Origin: a virus
Length of the DNA: 29,843 bases
Virus record (IMG/VR): IMGVR_UViG_3300030107_007463
Span: 1 to 29,843 of that record
Reading direction: 5' to 3' (one strand)
Each line of letters starts with the position of its first letter. The stretch's first letter is position 1. Shown piece after piece: positions 524-16,289 of this stretch. The position numbers and the translations under genes are program-made. Below the pieces are notes generated by a model. The model searched no databases. It was not told the origin of the DNA and saw only the letters and a list, made by a program, of their open reading frames with translations.

Positions 524-546
524 TTTGTCTCCAATGTTTAAAATAA

Positions 547-617
547 GCGGGTGATGGGATTCGAACCCACGACCCTCGCGTTGGCAACGCGATGCTCTAC
601 CACTGAGCCACACCCGC
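547..617 (-). tRNA. tRNA-Gly (anticodon GCC)
   Basis: Read on the minus strand, a full cloverleaf is visible. The acceptor GCGGGTG pairs with CACCCGC. The D-stem is GCTC/GAGC, and the anticodon stem TCGCG/CGCGA encloses loop TTGCCAA with anticodon GCC. The T-arm GTGGG-TTCGAAT-CCCAT is present. The CCA end is not encoded (TTA follows). It lies 6 bases downstream of the tmRNA, so the two are probably cut from one transcript. A phage Gly(GCC) tRNA would help read GGC/GGU codons in this AT-rich genome (inference). Confidence 0.96.
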
Positions 618-623
618 AATGTT

Positions 624-955
624 TGGTGGATCCGGCGGGAATCGAACCCGCGTCCGCAATAGTCTTAGTTTGAGTCATTCACATGCTTATCTGGTTATTT
701 CTCTAGCCAGCAAGATAGACGGTTGTAAAACGATGCTTACCGTCCTGTTGCATCGAGTTGTTTTGATTTTTGCAACTGTCCTGTTGTTTTGCTCCTCTTG
801 GATAGATGGCTCGGAGCGGCCACCCGATTAAGCCGCTAGGGCTTCTTCGAAATACAAATTATTGTTTGCGTTTATAAAATTTGAACGATTAAGGTTGGTT
901 CACACCTGCATGCACTCTCCCCTTGATTCTACTCCGTCGAAGCCTTTTCGGACCC
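624..955 (-). ncRNA. ssrA: tmRNA (transfer-messenger RNA), phage-encoded
   Basis: This RNA rescues stalled ribosomes by acting first as an alanine tRNA and then as a short mRNA for a degradation tag. The ends form a 7-bp acceptor, GGGTCCG with CGGATCC, followed by discriminator A and an encoded CCA. The T-arm GCGGG-TTCGATT-CCCGC and the conserved 5' segment AAAAGGCTTCGACGG are present. The tag frame at 828-869 encodes ANNNLYFEEALAA and a TAA stop, with the usual Ala resume codon and ALAA end. At about 332 nt it has normal one-piece length. Its first 27 nt overlap the stop end of the upstream membrane-protein gene. No promoter is evident directly upstream, so it is probably processed from a longer transcript. 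tmRNAs are known in some phages, for example mycobacteriophage Bxz1, but are uncommon. Confidence 0.96.
828..869 (-). other. tmRNA tag-peptide reading frame
   Basis: Thirteen codons plus TAA inside the tmRNA encode ANNNLYFEEALAA. The first codon is GCA (Ala), as in bacterial tags, and the C-terminal ALAA is the usual recognition end for ClpXP-type proteases. This is read directly; the protease role is family knowledge. Confidence 0.93.
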
Positions 956-1119: not shown

Positions 1120-2073
1120 TTAATTACTGTGTTTTCCAACAACCCTGCTATCATCTTCTATTCTGCTTAGTGAATTACCGGCTGTTTTTTTTAATTTTTT
1201 AAGCACATCATATTTTGATGTTCTTGAATAGCCTTTACCAAAATCTGTGCCTACACCGTATTTTTCTAAAACAGCATCAACTTCCTCTTCTGTTTTTGTT
1301 GACTTTAACTCTTCCTCTAAAAAAGAAACCTGATCGATAAGGACTCTATTGGCTATTGTCCATGCCAATGGAAGTTTTCTAACTTTTATGTTCTCTGTCT
1401 TTCCAGTCAAGTAGTTGGTTTGTGTAGCCTCAGTTTCAATAGTGTCAAATAACTTACCTTCATTTGCGTCAATAGCAGAGGTATAACTAAAGAACTCTGG
1501 TTGGCCATATACATACCTCATTAATTTAGTGAGACCAAATCCCTTGTAAAAATCATACGCTAGATCCATAGCCTTTGCTATCTCTGGGTTTGTATCTGCT
1601 ATAAGGTCCAAATCCAACTCTGTCGCATAAGCGTAATAGCCGTTGACTTGACTTTGTGATGTGGGCGCTAGACGCCATTCTCTGCCGTCTTCCAATTCTT
1701 TTGGTGCTATCATTAATTTTCCAATCTTAGAAAATTGTAGTTGTTTAATTTCACTTGGACTTAGACCCTCGTATTTATCTTTTTGAGAAGAGCCGCTTTT
1801 TTCCTTTTCATACTCTTGTACAGCCTTGGCATATTCTGGGTCTTCTAAATCTAACATCGCTAACTCTTCTGGGCTAGCATCTATTAGTTCATCTTGCTGA
1901 GTATCGCTTAATGACTTAAAATAATCGGTATTCATAATAGCATAAAGTAAACCCACCGCAGCGGATCCTGCTAAGAATTGACGTCGAGTAAGTGCCTCTT
2001 CTAATCTTTTTCTTATGATTGGGCTCAAATCTGGGTTGATAAAACCCCGCCAGTTGTTCATCACTTGTTTCAT
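1120..2073 (-). CDS. Hypothetical protein with twin-arginine-like hydrophobic N-terminal segment
   Basis: This is a 317-residue protein with ATG at 2073 and a GAGGA ribosome site 6 nt away. An amphipathic leader contains NNWRGFI. At about residues 30-48 comes TRRQFLAGSAAVGLLYAI, an RRxFL motif followed by a hydrophobic run. That resembles a Tat signal or signal anchor, although it starts unusually far from the N-terminus. An acidic, Glu/Asp/Gln-rich segment of about residues 55-95 follows, then a mixed alpha/beta region and a Lys/Arg-rich C-terminus. No enzyme motif is visible. It is the first gene after a possible promoter at 2093-2121 and precedes the small membrane protein and tmRNA. The N-terminal W-x-x-F pattern is shared with the protein at 3798-4409. 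The function is unknown; Tat export is inference only. Confidence 0.72.
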   Translation of the reverse strand: MKQVMNNWRGFINPDLSPIIRKRLEEALTRRQFLAGSAAVGLLYAIMNTDYFKSLSDTQQDELIDASPEELAMLDLEDPEYAKAVQEYEKEKSGSSQKDKYEGLSPSEIKQLQFSKIGKLMIAPKELEDGREWRLAPTSQSQVNGYYAYATELDLDLIADTNPEIAKAMDLAYDFYKGFGLTKLMRYVYGQPEFFSYTSAIDANEGKLFDTIETEATQTNYLTGKTENIKVRKLPLAWTIANRVLIDQVSFLEEELKSTKTEEEVDAVLEKYGVGTDFGKGYSRTSKYDVLKKLKKTAGNSLSRIEDDSRVVGKHSN

Positions 2074-8334: not shown

Positions 8335-9693
8335 CTATTTTGATGATATTTCTTGATACTTTTTTCTTAAAATTGACAAAGCCTCGGTCGTAGATTGCAT
8401 AATATCTAAGTCTTCACCTCTGTCTAGAATTTTAATTGTTACATCGGACCAATCAACGAACGCTTGAAAAACCATTCCGTCGGGTCCATTTCTATTTTTT
8501 GCAACAAACACTCTTCCTTTATTTGCTTGTTTGTCTTGTACTGTTCTCGATAAAGAAAATATGAAATCAGCAACAAAACATTTATTAAAAGCCTCCGAGA
8601 TTGATTCCATTGTGATAACCTCGGCATTTAATCCGGAGCGATTTGTCTGAGAGGCTGTCCACAAAGGTAGTTCATAAATTTGAGCCAATGCTCTTAAGCC
8701 CTCATAGATTTCCTCTAACTCATGACGCTTTTCTCCGGATGTCCTAGTGGGTCTTAATAAATCTGCATAATCAACCAGAATAATATCCGGATGAATACCT
8801 CTCTTTTTTAGTTTCTCAATATGATTCTTTATTGTTTGCACTGATGCCGATTTTGTGGGATACTCTTTCACAATCAAAGATCCTTCAATGTCTTGTATTT
8901 TATTTAGTATCTCATCCTTCCTTTCTCTGTGTTCGTTTAGAGGAATCTGTGTTAAACAAGAATCGAATCTACTCCCAACAACTTTATCTTTTAACTCCAA
9001 CGTGTAGTAGACTACCGTTTTACCTTGTTTTAAAGCCTGCGTTGCCAAATGGACCAAAACCATTGACTTACCAGCACCAGTAGGAGCAATAACAACACCC
9101 AATTCACTTTTACCTAAACCTCCTTTACAAATTTCATCAACACGACTCCAGCCGGTTGTTATGGGGCTACGATTTTCAATTTCAAATCGTGCCAATGCAT
9201 CTTTGTGAAAATCATGACCAAAGTTATTGTCAGTTCCTAATTTTAGTGCCTCTTGAATAACTTTCTCTATTTCATCAAAGGACGATGACTTTAATAATTT
9301 AACACACTTCATCATCGCCTGTTTTAATACTTGTTTTCTGCAAAAATCAAGGGCACGATCCTTTACATAGGCTGCTTCTTCTATGCCATCTGATGTATGT
9401 ATTCTGGCGAAAAAAGATCTTACTTGGCCGGCCGTTGCTTTATCATGGTGATTAAGTTCGGTTCTCAAAAGAGACATCATTACCTCGTGATTAGGATGAG
9501 TATCGTATTTCTCACGATAGTTCATCAGTGTCTCTATAAATATCTGTAGATATTTTTTTTCAAAGAAATTCGTGTCCAAAACTTCCGAGATCTGATCATA
9601 AAATGGTCTGTCCTCTAACATTAATTGGCACATATTTTCTTGGAATTTTTTCCCAAAACGAGAAAAGGTTTCGTGGTCGTTATTAATACTCAT
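8335..9693 (-). CDS. dnaB: Replicative DNA helicase, DnaB/gp41-like
   Basis: This 452-residue hexameric helicase unwinds DNA ahead of the polymerase. Residues 1-160 form an N-terminal helical domain. The RecA-like motor follows: Walker A APTGAGKS (203-210), a TLEL helix as in DnaB, Walker B IILVDYADL (304-312), then a WTASQTNRSG motif and an arginine-finger region FVAKNRNGPDG. No primase domain is fused, and no primase is visible in this window. GGAGG precedes ATG 9693, and a promoter with a perfect -35 and -10 lies just upstream. It probably works with the polymerase, ssDNA-binding protein and exonuclease in the same region. Confidence 0.93.
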   Translation of the reverse strand: MSINNDHETFSRFGKKFQENMCQLMLEDRPFYDQISEVLDTNFFEKKYLQIFIETLMNYREKYDTHPNHEVMMSLLRTELNHHDKATAGQVRSFFARIHTSDGIEEAAYVKDRALDFCRKQVLKQAMMKCVKLLKSSSFDEIEKVIQEALKLGTDNNFGHDFHKDALARFEIENRSPITTGWSRVDEICKGGLGKSELGVVIAPTGAGKSMVLVHLATQALKQGKTVVYYTLELKDKVVGSRFDSCLTQIPLNEHRERKDEILNKIQDIEGSLIVKEYPTKSASVQTIKNHIEKLKKRGIHPDIILVDYADLLRPTRTSGEKRHELEEIYEGLRALAQIYELPLWTASQTNRSGLNAEVITMESISEAFNKCFVADFIFSLSRTVQDKQANKGRVFVAKNRNGPDGMVFQAFVDWSDVTIKILDRGEDLDIMQSTTEALSILRKKYQEISSK

Positions 9694-9751: not shown

Positions 9752-10702
9752 CTATCTTTTTATTTTTTTCATTACTGCTGATAATTCGTCAAAGTTGATG
9801 TATGAACAATCATCTTCAAACAACATTTTTGTAAACTTTAAGCGCGAAAACTCAGGTTCAAACTTTAATATCGTATTATCAATAAATATTCTGTTGATTG
9901 GTCTGATGTTTGGATTGTAAAGTTGCATGATACTGTAGTTGTTTTTTACCAAATCGGTAGATTGTAAAATGTTCTCATGTAGTTTAAGCCTTTTTGTTTG
10001 CATTGCACAACTTTTAACAATTGCTTGAAAATCATACTCCTCTGAGTTAGCCAAGAAAGGGAAACGTTTAGCGATTGTTTTAAGCCCAACGCCAGACACA
10101 CCGGGAAGGTTATCGCTTTTGTCTCCAGCAATTGCACGAGCAAGGGCAAAATTACTGGGATGAATTTTAAACTCATCAAGAATAGTGGTTTTTGAAACAA
10201 TCTTATCTTGGATGGGTCGATAGATGTATGTGTGGTCATCACAGAGTTGAAAAAAGTCTTTATCGGAAGAGACAATGATTTTATCCCACCCTCCGTAAAC
10301 AAGGTGCCGTGCTCCATAAGCGATAACATCATCGGCCTCAACATAGTCGATTGTAATTTGAATGATTGGTAACTCATTTAAGTACTCCATTAGCCTAATA
10401 AGTTGATAGGCTTTATTCTTTTTTTGTTCTTCATGTGATAATTCAATTAACCTACGATTGAATCTTATTGGACCTCTGCCTTCTTTGTACTCTTTGTTTA
10501 ACGCACGTTTACGTTGAGAACCTTCATGACCATCCCAAACAACAATCACCTCTTGAGGTTGAAACTTTCTACAAACTTTTTGTAAAGATTTTAGAAACCC
10601 TATGCAACCCCCAATAGGATTACCGTGTTTATCCAAAGTTGGGTTTACGATGTAACTGCGGATAAACATATTCAGTCCATCAATAAGCATAACTTTACTC
10701 AT
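9752..10702 (-). CDS. 5'-3' exonuclease (RNase H/FEN-like, PIN domain)
   Basis: This 316-residue enzyme resembles T4 RNase H and the 5' nuclease domain of Pol I, which remove RNA primers and flaps. The metal-binding residues are visible: Asp8 in LIDGLNMF, Asp57 in VVWDG, the E-A-D-D cluster at 122-125, Asp147 and Asp149 in SSDKDF, and Asp194/Asp197 in AGDKSDNLPG. The helix-3-turn-helix GVSGVGLKTI (201-210) binds DNA. RKRALNKEYKEGR is the conserved basic arch segment. ATG 10702 overlaps the stop of the 55-residue gene as ATGA and has GGAGG upstream. Since the polymerase here has no 5' nuclease domain, this gene supplies that activity in trans. Confidence 0.93.
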   Translation of the reverse strand: MSKVMLIDGLNMFIRSYIVNPTLDKHGNPIGGCIGFLKSLQKVCRKFQPQEVIVVWDGHEGSQRKRALNKEYKEGRGPIRFNRRLIELSHEEQKKNKAYQLIRLMEYLNELPIIQITIDYVEADDVIAYGARHLVYGGWDKIIVSSDKDFFQLCDDHTYIYRPIQDKIVSKTTILDEFKIHPSNFALARAIAGDKSDNLPGVSGVGLKTIAKRFPFLANSEEYDFQAIVKSCAMQTKRLKLHENILQSTDLVKNNYSIMQLYNPNIRPINRIFIDNTILKFEPEFSRLKFTKMLFEDDCSYINFDELSAVMKKIKR

Positions 10703-10988: not shown

Positions 10989-12110
10989 TCAGTCTTTATC
11001 ATCTTCAATGGAGAAGTTTTTTCCTTCTGAATCAAATTTTTTGATAATCTCTTCATCCATAATCTCAAATACGATTGATCTGAATTTATGATCTTTAAGT
11101 TTATCAATCCAACTTGATGACCGGAATTTGTGCTCCTTACCTTTTGAATCGGTAAGGTAATACCATCCTCCACCTACCCGAAATCGGGATGATCCGGATA
11201 AACGGAGTGCTTCAAGCCAAGATTCTTCATCTTGAATTCCAACTTTATCTCCCCAAAGTATCTTGAAGCCACAGGTGCGACCTTCGGTGCCAAATCTTGA
11301 TTTTTCAATCTTAACTTTCACCTCGGAGCCAATCCGCAAACCAGTACCATCAGTAACAAAAGCCGCTTTGGCTTTGCGCTTTGTCAACCATACACGCATC
11401 GATGCAAAATACCCGATAGCCTTGCCACCGGGAGCAATAAAAGGCGTGGTCATCGCTTCTGCAACATTACTAGTAATATTAGTTTTCAACTGATTAATCA
11501 AAATGAGAGTACACTGTTGATTAGCCAGCGGGATTGTTAGTTTTGGAAAAGCCTTAGCAAATATGCGGGGCTTAACCGCCATTGTGGATTGTGGATTAAA
11601 GTCCGATTCAATTTCTTTTTCAGATGAAGTAGCAGCAATGCTATCCCAGATGAAAAGAAATTGGGTCTCAGGATATTCACCCATAAGATCCTCAATGGTT
11701 TCCAATGTTTTCTCAACTGAAACTGCTTGTACATACAAAAGTTCATTTGTATTTACACCAGCATCGGTAAGGAACTTTGGATCGATAGCACTTTCAGCGT
11801 CGAAGTAAACCACAGTGTGACCCATCTTCTGAGCGTTGGCGGCTATCTGAACAGCCATAAAAGATTTACCGGCTGATGACAGTCCAGCAATCTCGGTGAT
11901 TTTCCCAACAGGGATACCACCATACTTTCCTCTAACTGTAATAGAGTCAAGCCATCTAGACCCCGTAGGGATCCAAGTCTTTACTTCGGTAGGATTATCT
12001 TGCCGAAGATCATGTGCAACGTCAAGTCCAACTTTTTTATTGACGAACTTCTTCATTGCACTAATATCTATTTTTCCCGGTTTCGTAGTCATTTTTATTA
12101 CTTTACCCAA
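10989..12110 (-). CDS. uvsX: UvsX/RecA-like recombinase
   Basis: This 373-residue ATPase forms filaments on single-stranded DNA and pairs homologous strands. Walker A GLSSAGKS is at 76-83, and the family VVYFDAESA motif near residues 100-107 is followed by Walker B FLFIWDS with Asp156. An INQL segment and the PGGKA loop of RecA-type proteins come later, and the C-terminus is acidic. I prefer the TTG start at 12110: GGAG lies 10 nt upstream and the start overlaps the preceding stop by 8 nt. The alternative ATG at 12092 has no good ribosome site. A terminator follows. It works with the ssDNA-binding protein encoded two genes upstream. Confidence 0.93.
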   Translation of the reverse strand: MGKVIKMTTKPGKIDISAMKKFVNKKVGLDVAHDLRQDNPTEVKTWIPTGSRWLDSITVRGKYGGIPVGKITEIAGLSSAGKSFMAVQIAANAQKMGHTVVYFDAESAIDPKFLTDAGVNTNELLYVQAVSVEKTLETIEDLMGEYPETQFLFIWDSIAATSSEKEIESDFNPQSTMAVKPRIFAKAFPKLTIPLANQQCTLILINQLKTNITSNVAEAMTTPFIAPGGKAIGYFASMRVWLTKRKAKAAFVTDGTGLRIGSEVKVKIEKSRFGTEGRTCGFKILWGDKVGIQDEESWLEALRLSGSSRFRVGGGWYYLTDSKGKEHKFRSSSWIDKLKDHKFRSIVFEIMDEEIIKKFDSEGKNFSIEDDKD

Positions 12111-12730: not shown

Positions 12731-13495
12731 TTACTTATCGTTCATGAAATTTTGAAAAGCCTTGTCAACGTCCGAGGACTTATCTGAGTACTTAGTGGTT
12801 TCACTAGACCTACTTTCAGAGGACGTGTCGTTAGACAGAAAGTCATCTAGTAAAGCCTGTATATCTTCAGGTGTTTTTCGATCGAAAAGATCTCCAATAT
12901 TTGGGACTGACTCGAGCAACTGATCGCAATCAGCAACAGCGTCATCACAAAGTACACTCGGACGTCGACGAGGTTTTAGGGTGGTCTTAGGGAAAGACCC
13001 GGGAGTTCCCGGAATATCATAGTTTAATACTATGTCTGTTCCAGTATCCGAATCAGTAATATCACCATAGTCAGGGTCGAGGACATAACCCAGCAAGGTT
13101 TCATACGCGGTCTTTCCATAAGACCAAACTTTTACTCCCTCAGATTCTTTTCCTCGAACAAGGATTGGTGAATAATAACGCTTACGAACAAAAAGTTTTT
13201 TCGCTTCTGATTTTAACGTACTATCATCATTCTCAACTCCTTCACGCCATAATTTAGACGCAAAATCACAGATTGGACAATCCTCTCCATGGTTTTTCTT
13301 GGGACATAGAATTCCGGGATTTTTGCCTACATTGTAATGGAAGTGGAATTCCTTAAACGGATCTCCGTCTTCTGTAGGTAGAATACGAATTGTTTGGTCG
13401 CCCTGTGACGGTCTCCATTTCGTATTGTTTGATTCTCTTTTACCAGTTTTAGATGCATTAAGTTTGGCGCGCATCGCTTCAATATCTATAGCCAT
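12731..13495 (-). CDS. Single-stranded DNA-binding protein, T4 gp32-like
   Basis: This 254-residue protein coats single-stranded DNA in replication and recombination. The zinc site of gp32 is recognisable: His51-x12-Cys64-x8-Cys73-x2-Cys76, against H-x12-C-x9-C-x2-C in T4. The N-terminus (AMRAKLNASKTGK) is basic and could support cooperative contacts. The C-terminal 45 residues are Asp/Ser-rich and would be the protein-interaction tail. ATG 13495 follows AGGAG. The gene has a strong promoter and a leader of about 90 nt beginning with an inverted repeat, then a terminator, so it can be made in quantity on its own. T4 gp32 represses its own translation through leader RNA; a similar control here is inference. 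Confidence 0.9.
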   Translation of the reverse strand: MAIDIEAMRAKLNASKTGKRESNNTKWRPSQGDQTIRILPTEDGDPFKEFHFHYNVGKNPGILCPKKNHGEDCPICDFASKLWREGVENDDSTLKSEAKKLFVRKRYYSPILVRGKESEGVKVWSYGKTAYETLLGYVLDPDYGDITDSDTGTDIVLNYDIPGTPGSFPKTTLKPRRRPSVLCDDAVADCDQLLESVPNIGDLFDRKTPEDIQALLDDFLSNDTSSESRSSETTKYSDKSSDVDKAFQNFMNDK

Positions 13496-13783: not shown

Positions 13784-14038
13784 CTAACTGTTGATAGTTA
13801 CATTACGAAAGGATGTCTGAAGAGATCCAATAACCGAATTGTAATTAAAAGTGCGAAACTGTCCTTTGTCAACATCGTAAACAGTTTCAAATCCGGGCTT
13901 GAGACTTCGGGCTCGAGTGAAAACACTCGTGACAGAAGTTGGAAGATCAGTCATTTTAATAAATGACATCGTTCTTTTGTCACCTTTCATAGTAATAAAA
14001 GTACCTGTGTGTACTGGGAATTTTTGTGTAATGCTCAT
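13784..14038 (-). CDS. Small WYL_2/DUF2693-like protein
   Basis: I chose ATG 14038, which has GGAG close upstream. The in-frame codon at 14083 lies within the promoter spacer and would not be transcribed. The 84-residue product has the pattern of a small SH3-barrel family common in phages: MKGDKRTMSFIKMTDLP, then VYDVDKGQFRTFNYNSVIG. This resembles PF10902 (WYL_2, formerly DUF2693), whose function is unknown. The gene starts a new unit behind its own promoter. The assignment is by eye, moderately sure. Confidence 0.7.
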   Translation of the reverse strand: MSITQKFPVHTGTFITMKGDKRTMSFIKMTDLPTSVTSVFTRARSLKPGFETVYDVDKGQFRTFNYNSVIGSLQTSFRNVTINS

Positions 14039-14064
14039 AATTTCTCCTTTTTTAAACATACAAT

Positions 14065-14093
14065 AATGTAACACGTTTGACATTGTTTGTCAA
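14065..14093 (-). promoter_or_regulatory. Sigma70-type promoter for the WYL_2-like gene
   Basis: TTGACA, 17 nt, TACATT; the spacer ends in GTGT. The TGA stop of the FtsZ/tubulin-like gene lies within the -35 box. The predicted start, near 14058, excludes the upstream ATG at 14083 and fixes the start at 14038. Confidence 0.78.
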
Positions 14094-14899
14094 GAAATTT
14101 CTTGAATAAAATGTGTAGAGTGTTTTACATAATAATAATTTTGGTCCTCTGTTGTCGACCAAATTGCAAATGAAACAATTTCATCTGAAATATCGCTTTT
14201 AACCATTTCTTTGATATTGGGCAAAAGATCAACATCATTTGATAAATCATCCTCATTTATGTTAATAATATAACTGGTTTCGGTTATGTTGTCAAGTGGA
14301 AAAAGCATCTTTTTTTCATTTTCTTCTACTTTACCATAACTTAAAGTACAAATACTGCTGATTATCTTTGGCGTATGGACTGATCCAAACTCTGGTTTTA
14401 CATTTCTACAATAATTAAGTGTGTGTATTGTAGAATAAATAAAAAAATTAATTTTATCATAATATTCATAAACTGTTCCATGACCTACAACTCCAAATAA
14501 TTTTTTATTAGACAACAAAATCAATTCAGATATCATACCTGACCTAGCATACTCCTGTAAGACATTAAAATGAACCTTGTGTCTTTGCTTCTCTTCCGTA
14601 GAAGAATATTCTAGATCAGGACAAAGGTAAACAACTTGCATTTTAACGTGCCTCAGTGCCTCTAGAACGCGTAGTGTAGCACCAGATATCTTACCACTAC
14701 CGCAAACAAATAGAATGCCCTCAGTGGCTGATTTGATGGCCTTCTTGCGAGGTTTGTAATTTACCTGATCATATTCTTCCACTGAACTACATTTTTTGAT
14801 TCCCTTACCTTCATCAAGTTGAATAACATGATACTGTTCATGTTGTTCAAAAAGTTTTGCAATATTACATCCGGCTTGGCCAATACCAACGATTAACAT
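14090..14899 (-). CDS. Divergent FtsZ/tubulin-superfamily protein
   Basis: This is a 269-residue protein with ATG 14899 after GGAGG. It opens MLIVGIGQAGCNIAK, and GQAGCN (7-12) matches the tubulin first loop (GQAGNQ). FVCGSGKISGATLRVLE (64-80) stands where FtsZ has the glycine loop GGGTGTGA. LILLSNKKL (127-134) aligns with FtsZ LIVIPNDRL, and the following long helix EYYDKINFFIYS matches H7. VKPEFGSV (167-174) takes the place of the catalytic T7 loop NVDFADV, with one Asp as Glu and the other as Ser. The C-terminal half (ETSYIININEDDL) resembles the second FtsZ domain. Phage tubulins (PhuZ, TubZ) form spindles or segregate DNA. With these altered motifs, GTPase activity is uncertain. Placement beside the polymerase suggests a replication or positioning role (inference). 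Confidence 0.72.
   Translation of the reverse strand: MLIVGIGQAGCNIAKLFEQHEQYHVIQLDEGKGIKKCSSVEEYDQVNYKPRKKAIKSATEGILFVCGSGKISGATLRVLEALRHVKMQVVYLCPDLEYSSTEEKQRHKVHFNVLQEYARSGMISELILLSNKKLFGVVGHGTVYEYYDKINFFIYSTIHTLNYCRNVKPEFGSVHTPKIISSICTLSYGKVEENEKKMLFPLDNITETSYIININEDDLSNDVDLLPNIKEMVKSDISDEIVSFAIWSTTEDQNYYYVKHSTHFIQEIS
14267..14295 (-). promoter_or_regulatory. Possible intragenic promoter in the FtsZ-like gene
   Basis: TTGACA, 17 nt, TATATT, with the spacer ending in GT as in the other promoters. It lies within codons of the FtsZ-like gene, where AT-rich chance matches are likely. It could add transcription of the WYL_2-like and SSB genes. Confidence 0.35.
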
Positions 14900-15099
14900 T
14901 TTTCCTCCAATTTTTCAAATTCATCTTCAAACAAATAGTAAATATGGTTATTTATTACCACAGCGAAAACATTTAAACTATCAAGTCTTTCATGTGTCTC
15001 CACAACGACACCCATCTCACCACCATGCAAATTTACAACCGCTTGTATTTTTGCGACTTTTGGTAAAGTGATTATTAAATCGCCCTCTTGTACTACCAT
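14893..15099 (-). CDS. Small beta-rich hypothetical protein upstream of the FtsZ-like gene
   Basis: This 68-residue protein starts at ATG 15099, overlapping the polymerase stop by 7 nt, with AAGGA 7 nt upstream. It begins VQEGDLIITL and has GGEMGVVVETHE and VFAVVINNHIYYLFEDEFEKL. The repeated short strands and the final acidic helix suggest an SH3-like barrel, similar in layout to the protein at 4390-4623. It ends 7 nt into the FtsZ-like gene, so the two are translated together. It may be a partner of that protein or a polymerase accessory factor (inference). The family is unknown. Confidence 0.7.
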   Translation of the reverse strand: MVVQEGDLIITLPKVAKIQAVVNLHGGEMGVVVETHERLDSLNVFAVVINNHIYYLFEDEFEKLEEKC

Positions 15100-16289
15100 G
15101 TAAATTCCTTCATTTGTCCTAAATTTTTACCGATATGACAAGAAGATAAAAATCTTCCAAGTTTGGTTTCTTCAAATATTTGCTTTAATTGTGGAATAAG
15201 ATCGCGATCATCCCGATGAAGATCGATAATAACACAATCGTGTACAGTAAAGGCGACATAACTTTTCCTATCTCTTAAGAATTTTTCGATTTTATTGACC
15301 CGGTCCAAACAGTTATCAGAGGAACTGGATTGAAGGAGATAGTTGAGCGCGTGAAATCGATCGCAAGTTGTCCTTCTACCAAACGGGGTTTGTAATATTT
15401 TTTCTTGTTCGTCGTAAAATTTTTCGACGAGAGCGTTTTTGCTATAGAATTCAGAATCGATAGTTTTGTTTTCCGAATTGTAGAGCCATGCAAAAAATTT
15501 TTGTTTTGCTTGTCCTCTGCTAATATCTTCTTTAAATATGTTTTTGATGTTCCACTCATGAATATCCTCCTGTGGTTGTTCTTGTCCCATTAGGGAAATC
15601 ATTGTTCTTATCTCTGCGGCATTAAAGTCAAGTTCTAAAAAACAGTCCCACTTGGGCTCGACAATGTCCTTTAATTCGCTTTTAAGATTCATTATGGGGA
15701 ATGACCCCTCCATCGTTGTTAAGCGTCCTGTGACGCTACCAAAGAGGTTGTATTTAATATGCACCTCTTTTCTATCTTTTATCCAATTCCACAAATTTCT
15801 TGCTTTCGCATCATTTTGTGAATAACGAAATAATTTGTGCTTGTTAACGTGTAGGGCACGTTTTTGAAGATTTTGTATGGTTATATAACTGTCATGCAAT
15901 AGCCCGTAATGTATTGGTTTGTCAACATTTGAAAAAACCCAATCACAAATTTCATTTTTAGTTTGGAAATAATGCTGTAAATGTTTGTTTGGTACAAGGT
16001 CAAAAAAGCATACATTATCCATATTAATTTTGCATGTGTAAAAGGATTTAAAGTGACCTTTAATTTTACTTTCCGCAACTTTCCATCTATTCACCAAATG
16101 TTCAGGGCAGATGTCTGAAATTGGAGACCCTTGTGACCACAAATAAGCATATTGTATGTGTCGATCTTCTAAGTGCTCTGAGAATCCCCAAGTTCCTGTT
16201 AAGTTATCTGGGATTCTATCGTAAGTAAATTCACCATTTGAAAACACCCCTATGCAGTCTTTTTTGTCGTCCATTAATTGAAATACCAT
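15093..16289 (-). CDS. polA: Family A DNA polymerase, polymerase domain only
   Basis: This 398-residue enzyme copies DNA. The polymerase motifs are clear. GSVTGRLTT (184-192) is the TGRLSS-type segment. Motif A is DFNAAEIR (221-228), with Asp221 and Glu226. Motif B has Arg258, Lys262, Phe266 and Tyr270 at the same spacing as Pol I R754, K758, F762 and Y766. Motif C is VHDC (349-352), where VHDE is usual, so Cys replaces the second acidic residue. No 3'-5' exonuclease domain fits in the first 180 residues, which look unrelated to one, so proofreading must come from another protein or be absent. ATG 16289 follows GGAGG, and the gene adjoins the 431-residue gene by 8 nt. Confidence 0.92.
   Translation of the reverse strand: MVFQLMDDKKDCIGVFSNGEFTYDRIPDNLTGTWGFSEHLEDRHIQYAYLWSQGSPISDICPEHLVNRWKVAESKIKGHFKSFYTCKINMDNVCFFDLVPNKHLQHYFQTKNEICDWVFSNVDKPIHYGLLHDSYITIQNLQKRALHVNKHKLFRYSQNDAKARNLWNWIKDRKEVHIKYNLFGSVTGRLTTMEGSFPIMNLKSELKDIVEPKWDCFLELDFNAAEIRTMISLMGQEQPQEDIHEWNIKNIFKEDISRGQAKQKFFAWLYNSENKTIDSEFYSKNALVEKFYDEQEKILQTPFGRRTTCDRFHALNYLLQSSSSDNCLDRVNKIEKFLRDRKSYVAFTVHDCVIIDLHRDDRDLIPQLKQIFEETKLGRFLSSCHIGKNLGQMKEFTW

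What the first reader, a model, noticed from the sequence alone, without database searches (positions are those of the whole stretch)
14090..14899. Divergent FtsZ/tubulin-like protein with altered nucleotide and catalytic loops beside the DNA polymerase
The order of motifs fits the tubulin/FtsZ fold from end to end: GQAGCN at residues 7-12, a glycine loop CGSGKISG at 66-73, LILLSNKKL, a long H7-like helix, and KPEFGSV where FtsZ has NVDFADV. The signature GGGTGTG is replaced, and one of the two catalytic acidic residues is lost (D to S) while the other is Glu. Known phage tubulins (PhuZ, TubZ) are outside T4-like replication clusters as far as I know. This could be a non-hydrolysing or Lys-assisted relative that positions the replication site or DNA.
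Basis: partly seen in the sequence, partly recalled or inferred. Interest (0 to 1): 0.8.

Follow-up and report, generated by a model that had tools for sequence, protein, structure and literature searches.

The report
Tubulin-fold protein beside phage DNA polymerase
A large, uncultured group of aquatic T4-like viruses of bacteria carries, directly after its DNA polymerase gene, a small relative of the cell-skeleton proteins tubulin and FtsZ that has kept the residues for holding a guanine nucleotide but lost the parts used to break it down, so a tubulin-fold protein probably serves viral DNA replication.

Summary
The 269-aa ORF at 14090-14899(-) gives an AlphaFold model with pLDDT 92.7 and pTM 0.91. 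Its 50 best-listed PDB matches are all FtsZ or TubZ (best E 1.3e-11), and a second, about 35%-identical member gives the same result (E 1.9e-13). It is one member of a family with at least 576 hits in viral contigs and no PHROG of its own. The two guanine-recognition Asn are kept (N131 98%, N151 100%). The GGGTGTG signature, the FtsZ T3 sequence, the T7 catalytic aspartates and helices H8/H9 are gone. The gene follows a short family A DNA polymerase in 181 of 199 loci; the other 18 contigs start within 645 nt upstream. A gp32-like SSB follows in 193. The host phages are the uncultured Far-T4 clade; in contigs picked only by capsid gene it was present in 11 of 11 where its site is covered. The one isolate, RM378, lacks it. 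Most likely it is a guanine-nucleotide-binding, non-hydrolysing accessory of the polymerase/replisome. That function is inferred; polymerisation, nucleotide and partner binding are untested.

The parts
14090..14899 (-). tubulin/FtsZ-fold protein (here TUB), 269 aa
   Evidence: AF2 pLDDT 92.7, pTM 0.91; Foldseek PDB top 50 all FtsZ/TubZ, best E 1.3e-11, TM 0.73; at least 576 viral relatives
14904..14908 (-). Shine-Dalgarno GGAGG, 4 nt before the TUB start codon
   Evidence: read directly from the sequence
14858..14887 (-). T1-like loop, residues 5-14 GIGQAGCNIA
   Evidence: G7 100%, G5 99%, G10 99%, A9 93%, C11 90% of 122 sequences
14681..14704 (-). T4-like loop, residues 66-73 CGSGKISG, in place of GGGTGTG and two residues shorter than FtsZ
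   Evidence: profile alignment to FtsZ and family counts
14507..14509 (-). N131, equivalent of E. coli FtsZ N165 (T6, guanine)
   Evidence: 98% conserved; aligned; role of N165 in PMC8456036
14447..14449 (-). N151 in H7, equivalent of E. coli FtsZ N186 / S. aureus D187 (guanine)
   Evidence: 100% conserved; aligned
14402..14458 (-). central helix H7, residues 148-166
   Evidence: DSSP on the AF2 model; also H151-173 in the second model
14357..14401 (-). slot of the T7 loop and H8, residues 167-181: no helix, no column with conserved Asp/Glu; among the two least conserved regions
14893..15099 (-). 68-aa ORF between POL and TUB, overlapping each by 7 nt; found only in the window's subclade
15093..16289 (-). 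short family A DNA polymerase (POL), 398 aa, too short to hold the 3'-5' exonuclease domain of Pol I
   Evidence: Pfam DNA_pol_A 1.5e-9; PHROG DNA polymerase 3.2e-20
12731..13495 (-). gp32-like single-strand binding protein (SSB), downstream of TUB
   Evidence: Pfam gp32 1.4e-16; downstream in 193 of 199 loci
13784..14083 (-). small ORF between TUB and SSB, present in many relatives, function unknown
10989..12110 (-). RecA-like recombinase of the same gene cluster
   Evidence: Pfam RecA 2.6e-40
9752..10702 (-). 5'-3' exonuclease of the same gene cluster
   Evidence: Pfam 5_3_exonuc_N 1.2e-28
8335..9693 (-). DnaB-like helicase of the same gene cluster
   Evidence: Pfam DnaB_C 6.5e-22

Best explanation
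TUB is a minimal, divergent protein of the tubulin/FtsZ fold that binds a guanine nucleotide but does not hydrolyse it by the tubulin/FtsZ mechanism. It is a core part of the replication machinery of Far-T4 phages and acts with the short family A DNA polymerase encoded directly upstream, most likely as a nucleotide-stabilised accessory or scaffold subunit of the polymerase/replisome. Shown by computation: the fold, the conserved guanine-site residues, the loss of GGGTGTG, the T3 sequence, T7 aspartates, H8 and H9, and the POL-TUB-SSB order. Inferred: nucleotide binding, lack of hydrolysis, partnership with the polymerase.
For: Fold: two AF2 models (pLDDT 92.7 and 95.6) whose best PDB matches are all FtsZ/TubZ; profile score 8 s.d. 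above shuffled controls. Pocket: N131 98%, N151 100%, aromatic at 147 in about 90%, D29 92%, T1 glycines 99-100%. Lost catalysis: no conserved acid in 167-181, no H8 helix in either model; in FtsZ the T7 aspartates hold the attacking water (PMC8936486). Context: POL directly upstream in 181 of 199 loci, the rest truncated; SSB downstream in 193; of 152 complete pairs 120 are within 30 nt and 77 overlap. POL and TUB distances correlate at 0.80, higher than either with SSB (0.70, 0.68). Present in 11 of 11 capsid-selected contigs that cover the site. One copy in each of 11 large contigs.
Against: No biochemistry and no predicted complex: partnership rests on gene order. Correlated distances are expected for any neighbouring co-inherited genes. 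Loss of canonical T7/H8 contacts does not exclude another kind of filament. N12, the T1 Asn, is only 66% conserved, so the mode of phosphate binding is unclear. RM378, the only isolate of the clade, replicates without it, although with a different polymerase.
Confidence: 0.5

Rival explanations
1. It is a phage cytoskeletal protein like PhuZ or TubZ: it polymerises into filaments that position or segregate phage DNA, and the polymerase linkage only reflects timing of expression.
For: Same fold as FtsZ, TubZ and other viral FtsZ/tubulin-like proteins; known phage tubulins do position DNA (PMC4244570); in phiKZ the PhuZ gene lies about 8 kb from a DNA polymerase gene.
Against: T7 aspartates, H8 and the GGGTGTG loop, which carry longitudinal contacts and hydrolysis in FtsZ, are absent; no long C-terminal tail; linkage is to the polymerase itself, often with overlapping reading frames.
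Confidence: 0.22
2. It is a decoy or cap of the host FtsZ: the tubulin-like top face without a T7 bottom face binds host FtsZ and blocks division.
For: Nucleotide loops kept while the bottom T7 face is lost, as expected of a chain terminator; phage inhibitors of FtsZ are a known kind (general knowledge).
Against: Very divergent family (26-72% identity) yet strictly tied to POL and SSB; sequence similarity to FtsZ is only at profile level, not what a close mimic would show.
Confidence: 0.1
3. It is a sensor or buffer of guanine nucleotides (GTP, dGTP) that adjusts polymerase activity to the nucleotide pool.
For: Conserved guanine pocket without hydrolysis residues; ribonucleotide reductase and ThyX genes in the same window.
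Against: No direct evidence; nucleotide synthesis genes are common in T4-like phages (general knowledge).
Confidence: 0.08
4. It is an ordinary Rossmann NAD(P)-binding dehydrogenase-like protein with a chance resemblance to tubulin.
For: Weak Pfam matches to Sacchrp_dh_NADP (0.0018) and TrkA_N in single members.
Against: High-confidence models with H7 and the C-terminal mixed sheet; all 50 top PDB matches are FtsZ/TubZ in both models; profile control.
Confidence: 0.02

Closest known systems
Bacterial FtsZ
   Same: Fold, order of elements S1-H1 ... H7 and C-terminal domain (S7-S10, H10), guanine-site residues (E. coli N165, N186), T1 glycines
   Different: About 270 aa; no GGGTGTG; T3 sequence replaced by a conserved ExYE; no T7 aspartates; no H8 or H9; about 12% identity; linked to phage DNA polymerase rather than division genes
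TubZ (plasmid and phage partition tubulin)
   Same: Fold (Foldseek E 4e-11)
   Different: TubZ chains in PDB run to about 400 aa; no signature or T7 residues in TUB; TUB is linked to replication genes
PhuZ of nucleus-forming jumbo phages
   Same: Tubulin fold in a tailed phage; T1 of phiKZ PhuZ aligns weakly
   Different: The TUB profile finds nothing in phiKZ or 201phi2-1; PhuZ phages are not Far-T4; no POL-SSB pairing
Two further FtsZ-tubulin families of Makarova and Koonin 2010 (PMC2875224)
   Same: Precedent for divergent FtsZ-tubulin families outside division
   Different: Cellular, implicated in membrane remodelling; no direct comparison was made here
Uncultured phage FtsZ-like protein A0A6J5RW92
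   Same: Best viral structural match, E 4e-12, TM 0.76
   Different: 452 aa, annotated FtsZ; genome context not examined

Membership tests
Tubulin/FtsZ fold (superfamily) | N-terminal nucleotide-binding domain, long central H7 and C-terminal domain with mixed sheet | tested here: met
   DSSP order and Foldseek for two members
Tubulin/FtsZ fold (superfamily) | Detectable sequence profile (PF00091 above its cut-off) | tested here: not met
   17 of 90 members match at E up to 0.1, best 1.5e-4; window 17.4 bits against cut-off 33
FtsZ / tubulin / TubZ proper | Signature motif GGGTGTG (T4) | tested here: not met
   GSGxISG or SCGxISG instead
FtsZ / tubulin / TubZ proper | T7 loop with catalytic acids (NxDxxD) and H8 | tested here: not met
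   No conserved acid at 167-181; no helix there in either model
FtsZ / tubulin / TubZ proper | Guanine-recognising Asn in T6 and Asn/Asp in H7 | tested here: met
   N131 98%, N151 100%
FtsZ / tubulin / TubZ proper | GTP-dependent polymerisation | not testable with these tools
   needs protein
PhuZ family | Sequence kinship with PhuZ of phiKZ or 201phi2-1 | tested here: not met
   no match at E up to 1 in either genome; profile comparison not significant
Rossmann NAD(P)-binding dehydrogenase | Structural match to dehydrogenases and no tubulin C-terminal domain | tested here: not met
Far-T4 phages (the carrier) | gp23 related to that of Rhodothermus phage RM378 | tested here: met
   11 of 11 large relative contigs, E about 1e-47 to 1e-51; the window itself holds no gp23 but its sheath, tube, RNR and DnaB match RM378. 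No gp23 tree was built.

The most novel reading that the evidence does not exclude
A tubulin-fold protein has been recruited as a dedicated subunit of a DNA polymerase, possibly taking the place of the sliding clamp as processivity factor in Far-T4 phages: no gp45, DnaN or clamp-loader match was found in their large contigs, though divergent clamps could be missed and the contigs may be incomplete.
Probability: 0.15. Interest if true: 0.92.

Novelty: new variant of a known kind. Interest (0 to 1): 0.72.

Why it matters
Tubulin-fold proteins are known as filament-forming GTPases for division, transport and DNA positioning. Here one with its guanine pocket kept and its hydrolysis parts lost is a core gene, paired with the DNA polymerase gene, in a widespread clade of aquatic phages whose replication is unstudied. 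It has no PHROG and is not mentioned in the main text of the three Far-T4 papers searched. If it is a replisome subunit, it would be a new use of the tubulin fold; if it forms filaments without canonical hydrolysis residues, it would test which parts of the fold are needed for assembly.

Tried and rejected
NAD-binding Rossmann reading: weak Pfam hits only, rejected by both folds. Single-sequence and profile searches of PDB sequences: nothing significant. Cultured phages: no tblastn match for TUB or POL in 50,697 records. RM378 p006, E 0.009 with the family profile: helical protein, short local match, chance. E. coli FtsZ against phages: hits look like bacterial DNA in phage records, used only as FtsZ references. 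L143 appeared to lack POL because of an upstream start codon; POL is there. Clamp and clamp-loader searches negative but not decisive.

Full report
What was checked. The ORF at 14090-14899 on the minus strand encodes 269 aa behind a clear GGAGG.

Relatives. A first scan found a 69% identical neighbour. Ninety non-redundant members were aligned; identity to the window runs from 72 to 26%. A larger set has 121 clusters at 85% identity. No member was found in 50,697 phage records with two different queries. One was found among the bacterial and archaeal genome contigs scanned, in a WOR-3 MAG, itself within POL-TUB-SSB, so presumably phage DNA. Scanned singly, no PHROG is matched by more than one of the 90 members.

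Fold. AlphaFold2 on the family alignment gave pLDDT 92.7 and pTM 0.91. Foldseek against PDB gave 313 matches at E up to 0.001; the 50 listed are all FtsZ or TubZ (best 3wgl, E 1.3e-11, TM 0.73 by query). The second model, for a member about 35% identical to the window, gave pLDDT 95.6 and again only FtsZ/TubZ among the listed hits (best 5mn5, E 1.9e-13). In the viral structure library the best match is an FtsZ-annotated protein of an uncultured phage (E 4e-12). The profile-profile score against nine FtsZ sequences is 31.1, while 40 column-shuffled versions of the family average 14.7 with s.d. 2.0 and maximum 18.9. The HH-suite probability itself is low (13%), so sequence alone would not have settled it; the fold does. 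These are predicted, not solved, structures.

Anatomy. The order of elements is S1-H1-S2-(short helices)-S3-H3-S4-H4-S5-H5-H7-S7-S8-H10-S9-S10 (naming by comparison with FtsZ). Kept: T1 glycines (G5, G7, G10 at 99-100%), D29 at the end of S2 (92%; equivalent by position to D46 of S. aureus FtsZ, my assignment), T5 P94 (86%), N131 (98%) aligned with E. coli N165 which hydrogen-bonds guanine (PMC8456036), N151 (100%) aligned with E. coli N186 / S. aureus D187, and an aromatic residue at 147 in about 90% where FtsZ has the stacking Phe. Changed or lost: GGGTGTG becomes G-S-G-x-I-S-G or S-C-G-x-I-S-G, two residues shorter; the T3 sequence is replaced by a short helix with conserved E41 and Y43 (98%, 96%); the slot of T7 and H8 (167-181) has no helix, is among the two least conserved regions (1.61 bits against 2.16 overall; the H10 region is 1.57), and no column keeps an acid; H9 is absent. 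In FtsZ the two T7 aspartates hold the attacking water on the neighbour's nucleotide (PMC8936486). So the protein looks built to hold a guanine nucleotide but not to hydrolyse it in the FtsZ way. The conserved patch LQEYARSG (Q115, S120 100%; R119 99%) at the end of H4 has no counterpart known to me and may be a partner surface.

Context. Of 199 loci with TUB, 181 have the polymerase upstream (180 by filter plus L143 by inspection); in the other 18 the contig starts 645 nt or less upstream. Some contigs were sampled twice, so these are loci, not independent phages. In 152 complete pairs the gap is 30 nt or less in 120 and the reading frames overlap in 77. SSB of the gp32 family follows in 193, then RecA, 5'-3' exonuclease and DnaB. 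In the window a 68-aa ORF sits between POL and TUB, overlapping both by 7 nt, only in the nearest subclade. The polymerase is about 396 aa in the median (390-448), a size for the polymerase domain alone. POL and TUB distances correlate at 0.80, POL-SSB 0.70, TUB-SSB 0.68, suggestive only.

Carrier. RM378 gp23 matches all 11 large contigs, and the window's sheath, tube, RNR and DnaB match RM378: the phages are Far-T4 (Roux et al. 2015, PMC4360716). To avoid selecting on TUB, contigs were picked by Far-T4 gp23 and then searched: 11 of 13 have TUB, and the two without end 10-12 kb after gp23, short of the usual distance of about 20 kb. RM378 lacks TUB and this polymerase by profile search. The main texts of three Far-T4 papers do not mention tubulin or FtsZ; supplements could not be read.

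Mechanism. The tight, often overlapping pairing with the polymerase, one copy per large contig and presence throughout the sampled clade point to a replication role. I favour a guanine-nucleotide-stabilised, non-hydrolysing accessory of polymerase or replisome (0.5). A filament that places DNA, as with PhuZ, is the main rival (0.22); loss of the T7/H8 face speaks against the canonical filament but not against every filament. A cap on host FtsZ and a nucleotide sensor are less likely. Whether it replaces a clamp is open: gp45, DnaN and clamp-loader searches were negative in the large contigs, but the gp45 models could miss divergent clamps and completeness is unknown.

Filing. By the membership rule it is not an FtsZ, tubulin, TubZ or PhuZ: signature and T7 were tested and not met. 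It is a new family of the tubulin/FtsZ fold, associated with phage DNA replication.

Noticed in passing
window 624-955 (-) and 546-617 (-): A complete phage-borne tmRNA gene (Rfam RF00023, 111.7 bits; tag ANNNLYFEEALAA) beside a tRNA-Gly(GCC). The same pair with the same tag is in L315, and L316 has a tmRNA with tag ANNNLFFDEVALAA; none found in the 20 kb stretches L317 and L318.
   Followed up: partly
window 15093-16289 (-): The family A polymerase is unusually short and appears to have HDC (HDS in L143) where Pol I motif C has HDE; no tblastn relative in cultured phages.
   Followed up: partly
window 14893-15099 (-): A 68-aa ORF chained between POL and TUB by 7-nt overlaps, only in the nearest subclade; L001 carries two such small ORFs.
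   Followed up: partly
L214 (CP070664.1, WOR-3 bacterium MAG): A POL-TUB-SSB cluster inside a 2.8 Mb bacterial MAG chromosome record; either an integrated or a wrongly joined phage.
   Followed up: no
window 1120-2073 (-): A 317-aa protein with an RRQFLAGSAAVGLL stretch near its start, resembling a twin-arginine signal, in a phage genome.
   Followed up: no
TUB residues 112-121 (window 14537-14566) in all members: The LQEYARSG patch with Q115, R119 and S120 nearly invariant is as conserved as the T1 nucleotide loop (3.53 against 3.5 bits) and has no known role in FtsZ that I can name.
   Followed up: partly
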